A stretch of DNA of 64,000 bases. Source: Fusobacterium ulcerans ATCC 49185. Lineage in GTDB: Bacteria > Fusobacteriota > Fusobacteriia > Fusobacteriales > Fusobacteriaceae. A model generated the notes under the pieces. That model did not search any database. It was not told the DNA's origin and saw only the letters and a program-made list of their open reading frames with translations. The stretch covers positions 3,348,001 through 3,412,000 of the forward strand of contig NZ_LR215979.1 in assembly GCF_900683735.1 (NCBI RefSeq), given 5' to 3'. Position numbers and translations under genes: made by a program. Position 1 is the stretch's first letter. Every line of letters starts with the position of its first letter. Below are positions 62,571-63,752 of the stretch, in pieces.

Positions 62571-62607
62571 ACTCTGACAACCTAAATTAGTTGTCAGAGT
62601 CTTTTTT
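62571..62607. terminator. Terminator after ldhA, shared with the convergent Fur-family gene
   Basis: ACTCTGACAAC and GTTGTCAGAGT form a perfect 11-bp stem with an 8-nt loop, then C and six Ts on the plus strand. The minus side has a weaker T-tract. Confidence 0.92.
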
Positions 62608-62613
62608 ATTAAA

Positions 62614-62994
62614 TTATATTTTTTTATTATTACAGTTAGGGCAGGTACCATATAAAATTAAATCGAAATGCTTTATTTCTATATTTTTATCTGTTATTGC
62701 ATTTTCTAACAATGTTATATCAAAATTATCAATATCAGTAATTGTTTTACAACTATTGCAAATTAAATGTATATGTGATTTCAAATTTCTATCAAATCTA
62801 TCATTTTGATTGGGAAAACTCACTTTTTTTATTAAGTTCATTTCTACAAGTTTAGCTAAATTTCTATATACCGTTCCTAGACTTAGTTCTGGATTATTGG
62901 CTTTTAAAGAGATATAAATATCATCAGCAGTAGAATGCTTATCATCATTTAGTACATAATTTAATATTAATTCCCTTTGTCTAGAAAATTTCAT
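62614..62994 (-). CDS. Fur-family metalloregulator
   Basis: 126 residues from ATG 62994 (AAAGGAG 8 nt upstream). Winged-helix DNA-binding part (about 1-70, HSTADDIYISLKANNPELSL, GTVYRNLAKL) and a dimer domain with HIHLIC (74-79) and two structural zinc pairs, C79-x2-C82 and C118-x2-C121. It is divergent from a PTPS-family gene, and both promoters contain palindromes. Whether it is a Fur, Zur or PerR cannot be read; the short HIH segment and the linked pterin gene leave Zur or PerR possible. Confidence 0.93.
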   Translation of the reverse strand: MKFSRQRELILNYVLNDDKHSTADDIYISLKANNPELSLGTVYRNLAKLVEMNLIKKVSFPNQNDRFDRNLKSHIHLICNSCKTITDIDNFDITLLENAITDKNIEIKHFDLILYGTCPNCNNKKI

Positions 62995-63020
62995 AATATT
63001 AACTCCTTTCAAATAAAGTT

Positions 63021-63049
63021 CTATTATTATATAATAATATATTTTTCAA
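63021..63049 (-). promoter_or_regulatory. Promoter of the Fur-family gene with an 18-bp palindrome
   Basis: Minus strand TTGAAA (63049-63044), 17 nt, TAATAG (63026-63021). A perfect palindrome TATTATTAT/ATAATAATA (63022-63039) covers the spacer and most of the -10, a layout for autorepression. Confidence 0.65.
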
Positions 63050-63087: not shown

Positions 63088-63163
63088 TTGACATTAGGTA
63101 ATAAAAAGGTTATACTCTCTATATAATAATAATAATCATTACTGTTATTATATAGAGAGTATA
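63088..63163 (+). promoter_or_regulatory. Consensus promoter overlapped by a 53-bp palindrome
   Basis: TTGACA (63088-63093), 17 nt, TATACT (63111-63116). From 63111 to 63163 the DNA is a near-perfect palindrome centred on C63137: outer arms of 19 bp pair without mismatch, and of the seven inner pairs only two fail. The centre TAATAATCATTACTG resembles a 7-1-7 Fur-family box. The -10 lies inside the left arm. Confidence 0.8.
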
Positions 63164-63176
63164 AGGGAGGAAATAT

Positions 63177-63653
63177 ATGAGATCAGTAACTAAGTTAAAT
63201 ATTCAATATGCACATCGTTTTTTAGGATATGAGGGAGAGGCAGAATATCTTCATGGACATTCTGGGTTTTTGACAATTGAAGTAGAAGGAGATGTAGATA
63301 AAAGAACAGGTTTTGTTTATCCTTGTAATGGAATAAAGTCTATAGCATGGGATTATTTAAAGAATTTTGATCATGCATTAATTATGCAAGAAAATGATCC
63401 ATTACTGCCAAAAATTTTAGAAGTATATGAAAAGCAAGGAATAAAAGAAGGAACAAAAACAAATACTAATATGGGGTTACCAATAGAGAATGAATTAGCA
63501 AAAGCCTATCCAGAATGTAGATTAGTAGTTGTAAAAAAAGTGGCTACATGTGAAAATTTAATAGAAGTATTCTATTCTTTATTAAAGGATAAACTTAATA
63601 TTAAAAAAATGGTATTTGCATCAGGAGATAATTGTGCATCAACTGAATTTTAA
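63177..63653 (+). CDS. PTPS-family pterin enzyme (QueD/PTPS-III-like)
   Basis: 158 residues. Zinc-binding His13 (AHRF), His26 and His28 (LHGHSG) of the 6-pyruvoyl-tetrahydropterin synthase fold are present, as are FDHALI (about 64) and the C-terminal CENLIEVF with the pterin-anchoring Glu. At the catalytic Cys of QueD (CxxxHGH) there is Ala22, while Glu23 makes an ExxHGH motif, as described for PTPS-III proteins that replace FolB in folate synthesis. So a folate role is more likely than queuosine, though untested. GGGAGG precedes the ATG. Expressed from the palindrome-covered promoter. Confidence 0.82.
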   Translation: MRSVTKLNIQYAHRFLGYEGEAEYLHGHSGFLTIEVEGDVDKRTGFVYPCNGIKSIAWDYLKNFDHALIMQENDPLLPKILEVYEKQGIKEGTKTNTNMGLPIENELAKAYPECRLVVVKKVATCENLIEVFYSLLKDKLNIKKMVFASGDNCASTEF

Positions 63654-63717
63654 TATTGTAATATAAAATTAAATTCATAAATAATTTTATATAGTTAATT
63701 ATTTGTAAAACAAATGA

Positions 63718-63752
63718 GATTGAAAGAGTTAAAATTCTTTCAGTCTTTTTTT
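63718..63752 (+). terminator. Terminator after the PTPS-family gene
   Basis: GATTGAAAG and CTTTCAGTC form a 9-bp stem with one G-U pair and a 10-nt loop, followed by a T-run through 63752. Confidence 0.88.

What the first reader, a model, noticed from the sequence alone, without database searches (positions are those of the whole stretch)
63111..63163. 53-bp near-perfect palindrome over the promoter of a PTPS-family gene, centred on a Fur-like box
Nineteen outer base pairs are perfect and five of seven inner pairs match around a single central C. The -10 hexamer lies within the left arm, so the transcript would start inside it; this argues for a DNA operator, not a full RNA hairpin. The divergent neighbour encodes a Fur-family regulator. 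The symmetric size suggests two or more dimers bound side by side, more extended than a normal 19-bp box.
Basis: partly seen in the sequence, partly recalled or inferred. Interest (0 to 1): 0.72.

Follow-up and report, generated by a model that had tools for sequence, protein, structure and literature searches.

The report
Peroxide-regulator switch for pterin-type gene
The long palindrome is a real DNA control site where a neighbouring peroxide-sensor-type (PerR-like) repressor most likely turns off a poorly understood pterin-enzyme-like gene, and relatives in several phyla tie this gene to the oxygen-defence machinery of anaerobic bacteria.

Summary
The palindrome is real: 63110-63164, 55 bp, 25 of 27 pairs around C63137, far beyond chance. 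Comparison splits it in two. The inner 25 bp (63125-63149) is a conserved operator, AATAATAGTAATNATTACTATTATT. Among 61 family genomes a close match occurs once each in ten: the nine that carry the neighbouring Fur-type regulator, plus one decayed locus that kept the operator after losing the regulator. In other bacteria the same or a similar box lies just downstream of a TTGACA promoter before rubrerythrin-perR, perR-PTPS, an [FeFe] hydrogenase, a peroxiredoxin unit and the same PTPS gene, and it matches predicted Desulfovibrio PerR sites. The regulator keeps all PerR metal ligands. So this is most likely a PerR-type operator repressing PTPS, not a Zur box or an RNA hairpin. The outer perfect arms are private to this genome and do not argue for extra dimers; a template-switch copying accident explains them better. 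The newer point is the target: a PTPS subfamily lacking the known catalytic signatures, attached to Fur/PerR-type sites in two ways and twice fused to a rubrerythrin-type rubredoxin domain. Binding and function are untested.

The parts
63110..63164 (.). 55-bp near-perfect palindrome, centre C63137
63125..63149 (.). conserved 25-bp operator core, AATAATAATAATCATTACTGTTATT (2 mismatches to AATAATAGTAATNATTACTATTATT)
63128..63146 (.). 19-bp centre matching the predicted Desulfovibrio PerR site type AwnAGnAAtngTTnCTnwT
   Evidence: PMC545781 Tables 7 and 11; comparison by eye
63088..63093 (+). -35 hexamer TTGACA of the PTPS promoter
   Evidence: same element in the related sites
63111..63116 (+). 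-10 hexamer TATACT, inside the left arm
63122..63124 (+). expected transcription start (inferred from the -10)
   Evidence: inference
63151..63164 (.). right outer arm, exact reverse complement of 63110-63123; no counterpart in relatives; probable template-switch copy
   Evidence: origin is inference
63165..63170 (+). ribosome-binding site GGGAGG of the PTPS gene
   Evidence: sequence
63177..63653 (+). PTPS-family gene, 158 aa; subfamily motif GEA[QE]YLHGH, invariant Cys50
62614..62994 (-). PerR-like Fur-family regulator, 126 aa from ATG 62994 (the listed TTG start at 63012 is less likely)
63022..63039 (.). TATTATTATATAATAATA, perfect 18-bp palindrome 30-48 nt before the regulator's start codon; possible weak autoregulatory site
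   Evidence: function is a guess

Best explanation
The inner 25 or so bp of the palindrome is the operator of the divergently encoded PerR-like repressor. With its metal bound (Fe or Mn in known PerR), the dimer, possibly two overlapping dimers, sits just downstream of the -10 and over the start point of the PTPS gene and blocks RNA polymerase. Peroxide oxidises the metal site, the repressor leaves, and the PTPS gene is expressed. Shown here: the symmetry, its conservation, the one-box-per-genome pairing with the regulator, the box in front of known peroxide-defence genes in other bacteria, the promoter geometry and the conserved ligands. Inferred: binding, repression, peroxide as the signal, and a defence role of the PTPS protein. 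The outer perfect pairs are probably a recent inverted copy of the left promoter flank, made by a template switch at the palindrome, and not part of the recognition code.
For: Box with at most 2 mismatches occurs once per genome in 10 of 61 family genomes; the regulator orthologue (52-60% identity) is in exactly nine of these and nowhere else; the tenth, G025, keeps the box but has lost the regulator and half of PTPS. In G056 box and regulator stand before a small ORF and a 1-Cys peroxiredoxin instead of PTPS. In Clostridium sp. CCUG 7971 the box precedes rubrerythrin-perR, PTPS and an [FeFe] hydrogenase. Regulator: closest solved structure B. subtilis PerR (2fe3, 1.6e-20), PerR models ahead of Fur and far ahead of Zur; H20, D68, H74, H76, D87 and four Cys invariant in nine regulators with the recognition stretch LSLGTVYRNL. 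Core matches predicted Desulfovibrio PerR sites. Box centre lies 10-26 nt after the -10 in 17 sites.
Against: No binding or expression data. PerR model scores are below the curated equivalog cut-offs. The window's own core carries two mismatches. The relaxed 19-bp pattern shows no excess over its control in this genome (32 against 31), so no further targets can be claimed. Co-occurrence is counted on related genomes. The -35/-10 positions in relatives were chosen as best matches, which flatters the geometry.
Confidence: 0.74

Rival explanations
1. Extended operator: the full 53-55 bp is bound by several side-by-side dimers and the outer arms are functional contacts.
For: Chance pairing of the outer 12 pairs is about 4e-6 on local base composition, and relatives also extend 1-6 pairs beyond the 25-bp core with symmetric but varying bases.
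Against: Pairs 16-27 have no counterpart in nine related sites (2-7 of 12). The outer arms are more perfect than the conserved core, the reverse of selection on an operator. The left arm is partly fixed by the -10.
Confidence: 0.15
2. Zur operator: zinc limitation derepresses a zinc-sparing, QueD2-like paralogue.
For: The PTPS fold matches QueD2 of Acinetobacter baumannii among others, and the GTAATNATTAC core resembles the Gram-positive Zur consensus TAAATCGTAATNATTACGATTTA quoted in PMC545781.
Against: The Zur model scores 30 bits against 100 for PerR. Ligands are of PerR type. The same box stands before rubrerythrin-perR and peroxiredoxin units. No zinc-transport gene was seen next to a box; this was looked at in few loci.
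Confidence: 0.08
3. Fur operator responding to iron.
For: Fur models score second (77 bits); box architecture is shared across the family.
Against: No iron-uptake target was seen; targets in relatives are peroxide and oxygen defence genes.
Confidence: 0.07
4. RNA hairpin: the palindrome acts in the 5' untranslated region of the PTPS mRNA.
For: If transcribed whole it would fold at -25.3 kcal/mol (z -6.9) next to the ribosome-binding site; symmetric flanks covary in relatives.
Against: From the predicted start at 63123 the RNA folds at only -4.5 kcal/mol, z -0.4. The box keeps its sequence while its distance to the -10 varies from 10 to 26 nt, so in several relatives the left half would not be transcribed.
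Confidence: 0.05

Closest known systems
PerR boxes of anaerobes: Desulfovibrio perR-rbr-rdl, rbr2 and ahpC sites (predicted, PMC545781)
   Same: 19-bp centre AATAGTAATNATTACTATT fits the consensus AwnAGnAAtngTTnCTnwT; target set is peroxide defence
   Different: Symmetry here runs at least three more pairs out on each side, and the target is a PTPS gene
B. subtilis PerR and its box TTATAATNATTATAA (consensus quoted in PMC545781)
   Same: Fur-family fold, metal ligands and structural zinc cysteines; 7-1-7 dyad symmetry
   Different: GTAAT rather than ATAAT half-sites; one strong site in the genome instead of a multi-gene regulon
C. difficile rbr1-perR-rbo operon (PMC8546684, PMC11841134)
   Same: PerR-like gene beside rubrerythrin, as in Clostridium sp. 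CCUG 7971 (L041); small regulon around the perR locus; peroxide induction and binding shown there
   Different: No PTPS gene is reported in that regulon; its box sequence is not given in the text that was read
QueD and other COG0720 proteins (PTPS-I, II, III; PMC5041015)
   Same: Predicted fold matches 3jyg, 2oba, QueD and QueD2; HxH and Asp-His residues invariant
   Different: No CxxxHGH or CxxxxxHGH motif; residue of the ExxHGH position is Gln in 47 of 49; invariant Cys50; longer insertion; Fur/PerR-type regulation
E. coli Zur on znuABC (PMC4219657)
   Same: Fur-family repressor on an extended inverted repeat that can hold two dimers
   Different: Metal, targets and sequence differ; dimer number here unknown

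Membership tests
PerR regulator | Fur-family fold with His-Asp-His-His-Asp regulatory metal ligands | tested here: met
   H20, D68, H74, H76, D87 align with the B. subtilis PerR positions and are invariant in nine regulators
PerR regulator | Structural zinc site of two CxxC pairs | tested here: met
   C79/C82 and C118/C121 invariant
PerR regulator | Passes a curated PerR model cut-off | tested here: not met
   Best NCBIfam model is PerR, 100.2 bits against a cut-off of 180; no other curated model passes either
PerR regulator | Peroxide-sensitive DNA binding | not testable with these tools
   Needs gel shifts and expression data
PerR operator | Dyad-symmetric box over a promoter of peroxide-defence genes | tested here: met
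   Rubrerythrin-perR, peroxiredoxin and [FeFe] hydrogenase units in relatives
PerR operator | Sequence fits a published PerR site type | tested here: met
   Fits the predicted Desulfovibrio type, not the B. subtilis consensus TTATAATNATTATAA
Zur | Best match to Zur models and Zur-type targets | tested here: not met
   30.1 bits for the Zur model; no zinc gene seen beside a box in the loci read
PTPS-I (QueD) | CxxxHGH | tested here: not met
   GEA[QE]YLHGH in 49 of 49; QueD model 51 bits, cut-off 89
PTPS-II | CxxxxxHGH | tested here: not met
   Gly at that position in 49 of 49
PTPS-III (folate bypass) | ExxHGH and missing FolB | tested here: not met
   The window protein has Glu but 47 of 49 relatives have Gln; FolB is present, 126 bits
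Dispersed palindromic repeat | Several copies in the genome | tested here: not met
   Single copy
5' UTR RNA element | Both arms transcribed and structure stable | tested here: inconclusive
   Stable only if transcription starts upstream of 63110; start site not measured

The most novel reading that the evidence does not exclude
The PTPS subfamily with the GEA[QE]YLHGH motif and invariant Cys50 is an unrecognised oxygen- or peroxide-defence protein of anaerobes, working with rubredoxin-type electron carriers and spread horizontally across phyla, with or without its own PerR-like repressor.
Probability: 0.35. Interest if true: 0.8.

Novelty: new variant of a known kind. Interest (0 to 1): 0.55.

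Why it matters
PerR-type control of a PTPS-family gene did not turn up in the literature searches run here, and a 2025 review of aerobic stress in Fusobacterium nucleatum (PMC12288474) mentions neither PerR, Fur nor a pterin synthase. If right, this gives a testable role to a widely transferred protein whose nearest annotated relatives are pterin enzymes, a compact one-regulator, one-site peroxide switch, and a clear operator motif for this branch of PerR-like regulators in anaerobes.

Tried and rejected
Zur/QueD2 reading (ligands, model scores, targets in relatives). PTPS-III folate bypass: the window protein has ExxHGH, but 47 of 49 relatives have Gln there and FolB is present. RNA hairpin. 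Dispersed repeat. Intrinsic terminator: the scan lists only 62571-62600 and 63716-63747. Further sites of the regulator in this genome: the relaxed 19-bp pattern gave 32 matches against 31 for the control, so uninformative; the relaxed scan of seven other genomes was at control level too, and only exact or near-exact matches there were followed. One pair-counting call failed on string length and one report call on format. Literature searches for PerR together with pterin synthase genes gave nothing direct.

Full report
What is there. The palindrome spans 63110-63164, TTATACTCTCTATATAATAATAATAAT C ATTACTGTTATTATATAGAGAGTATAA, with 25 of 27 pairs. It is the top palindrome of the window by a wide margin and is not reached in randomised sequence. 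It is single-copy in the 3.84-Mb genome. It lies between a divergent Fur-family gene (62614-62994, minus strand) and a PTPS-family gene (63177-63653), with a predicted TTGACA-17-TATACT promoter whose -10 is inside the left arm. The genome belongs to Fusobacteriaceae: members of its family group include contigs that agree in length and locus with records titled Fusobacteriaceae (G060/L060) and Cetobacterium (G012/L069).

Conserved core against private arms. PTPS upstream regions from relatives share AATAATAGTAATNATTACTATTATT. Counting outward from the centre, pairs 1-12 are conserved in sequence. Pairs 13-15 are mostly symmetric but vary in base, and the whole set shows more covariation than all 500 shuffles, a test that related sequences can pass without structure. 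Pairs 16-27 are complete only in this genome (12 of 12, against 2-7 of 12 in nine relatives), while this genome's inner core has two mismatched pairs. Perfect outside and worn inside is the opposite of what selection on an operator would leave. The left outer arm shares 11 of 14 bases with the closest relative locus (G025) and contains the -10; the right arm is its exact reverse complement. The simplest account is a recent template switch that copied the left flank onto the right. This is inference: the right flank of G025 is deleted, so the ancestral state cannot be read.

Regulator and box travel together. Of 61 genomes of the family, ten have a box with two or fewer mismatches, each exactly one. 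Nine genomes have the regulator (the own copy and eight orthologues at 52-60% identity), and all nine are among the ten. In eight of them the box lies between regulator and PTPS. In G056 it lies between the regulator and a 61-aa ORF followed by a 1-Cys peroxiredoxin, while the PTPS of that genome, elsewhere, has no box. In G025 the regulator is gone and PTPS is truncated but the box remains: a decaying locus. PTPS genes without the neighbouring orthologue have no box in this family. The genomes are related, so the nominal probability of 6e-10 overstates the evidence.

Which regulator type. Nine aligned regulators keep H20, D68, H74, H76, D87 and the four cysteines, corresponding to the B. subtilis PerR ligands and structural zinc (residue roles from general knowledge of PerR), and share the recognition stretch LSLGTVYRNL. 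PerR models score best, though below the equivalog cut-offs. In Clostridium sp. CCUG 7971 the box lies before the rubrerythrin-perR operon, before the divergent PTPS gene and before an [FeFe] hydrogenase. In a Bacillales MAG a weaker box with four mismatches lies before a perR-PTPS operon. A three-mismatch version precedes PTPS in a Negativicutes MAG with the regulator adjacent, and in a Clostridium and a Spirochaetia MAG without one in the stretch held. The 19-bp centre fits the predicted Desulfovibrio PerR consensus in PMC545781. All 17 sites measured have a TTGACA-like -35 (at most one mismatch) and a box centred 10-26 nt after the best -10, as expected for a repressor over the start point. 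The varying register, and the lack of RNA structure from the predicted start, speak against an RNA hairpin.

A second, independent wiring. Five genomes of the same genus group lack this regulator but carry TTGTAATNATTACAA upstream of PTPS, the only perfect copy in each genome. In the present genome the only perfect copy precedes a pyridine-nucleotide oxidoreductase with three rubrerythrin-type rubredoxin domains. Which paralogue reads that box is not known. The PTPS gene is thus attached to Fur-family-type sites in two ways, both linked to rubredoxin-based defence.

The target. The protein has the PTPS fold (mean pLDDT 93.4; best matches 3jyg, 2oba, QueD, QueD2) and invariant H13, H26, H28, D65, H66 and Cys50, but none of the three published catalytic signatures as a conserved feature. 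Eighteen members carry a C-terminal CxxC...CxxC ribbon, and two from different phyla are fused to a RUBY_RBDX domain. The window's PTPS groups with Clostridia and not with other Fusobacteriaceae (95/85 support), so it was probably acquired horizontally. A defence role is a hypothesis from context only.

Limits. No binding, start site or expression was measured. Promoters are consensus matches. Regulons were examined in few genomes, and relaxed motif scans were at background. Two-dimer binding, known for E. coli Zur (PMC4219657), is compatible with the 25-bp core but untested.

Noticed in passing
L034 and L177 (G000:C1, about 674188-676700): A second PerR-like Fur paralogue sits directly upstream of an [FeFe] hydrogenase whose reading frame continues through a rubredoxin-like domain into a rubrerythrin domain. 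A homologous hydrogenase carries the window-type box in Clostridium sp. CCUG 7971 (L133).
   Followed up: partly
L152 (G000:C1:2419391-2419405) and L147-L151: TTGTAATNATTACAA occurs perfectly once per genome: before PTPS in five genomes of the same genus group, and in the present genome before a triple-rubredoxin pyridine-nucleotide oxidoreductase.
   Followed up: partly
L178 (G000:C1:2527305-2527643): A rubrerythrin-family gene with an N-terminal rubredoxin-like stretch has TGTAATGGTTACAA downstream of its promoter, two mismatches from the box above.
   Followed up: no
L065 2875-3474 and L068 2755-3402: PTPS proteins of this subfamily in a Spirochaetia and a Synergistaceae genome are fused to an N-terminal rubrerythrin-type rubredoxin domain.
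   Followed up: partly
window 63177-63653: The window's PTPS is 79-83% identical to proteins from Clostridia, Kiritimatiellota, Lentisphaerota and Desulfovibrionaceae but only 56-62% to most Fusobacteriaceae copies, pointing to wide horizontal transfer.
   Followed up: yes
L023/L081 (G025): A close relative holds a decayed version of the locus: operator intact, regulator gone, PTPS reduced to its last 69 codons.
   Followed up: yes
L015 and the same-strand regulator-PTPS pairs L036, L037, L043, L045, L047, L048, L050, L051, L053, L057: Other Fur-family regulators with different recognition helices sit directly upstream of PTPS on the same strand in several phyla; their operators were not worked out, apart from a box-like site in L057.
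   Followed up: no
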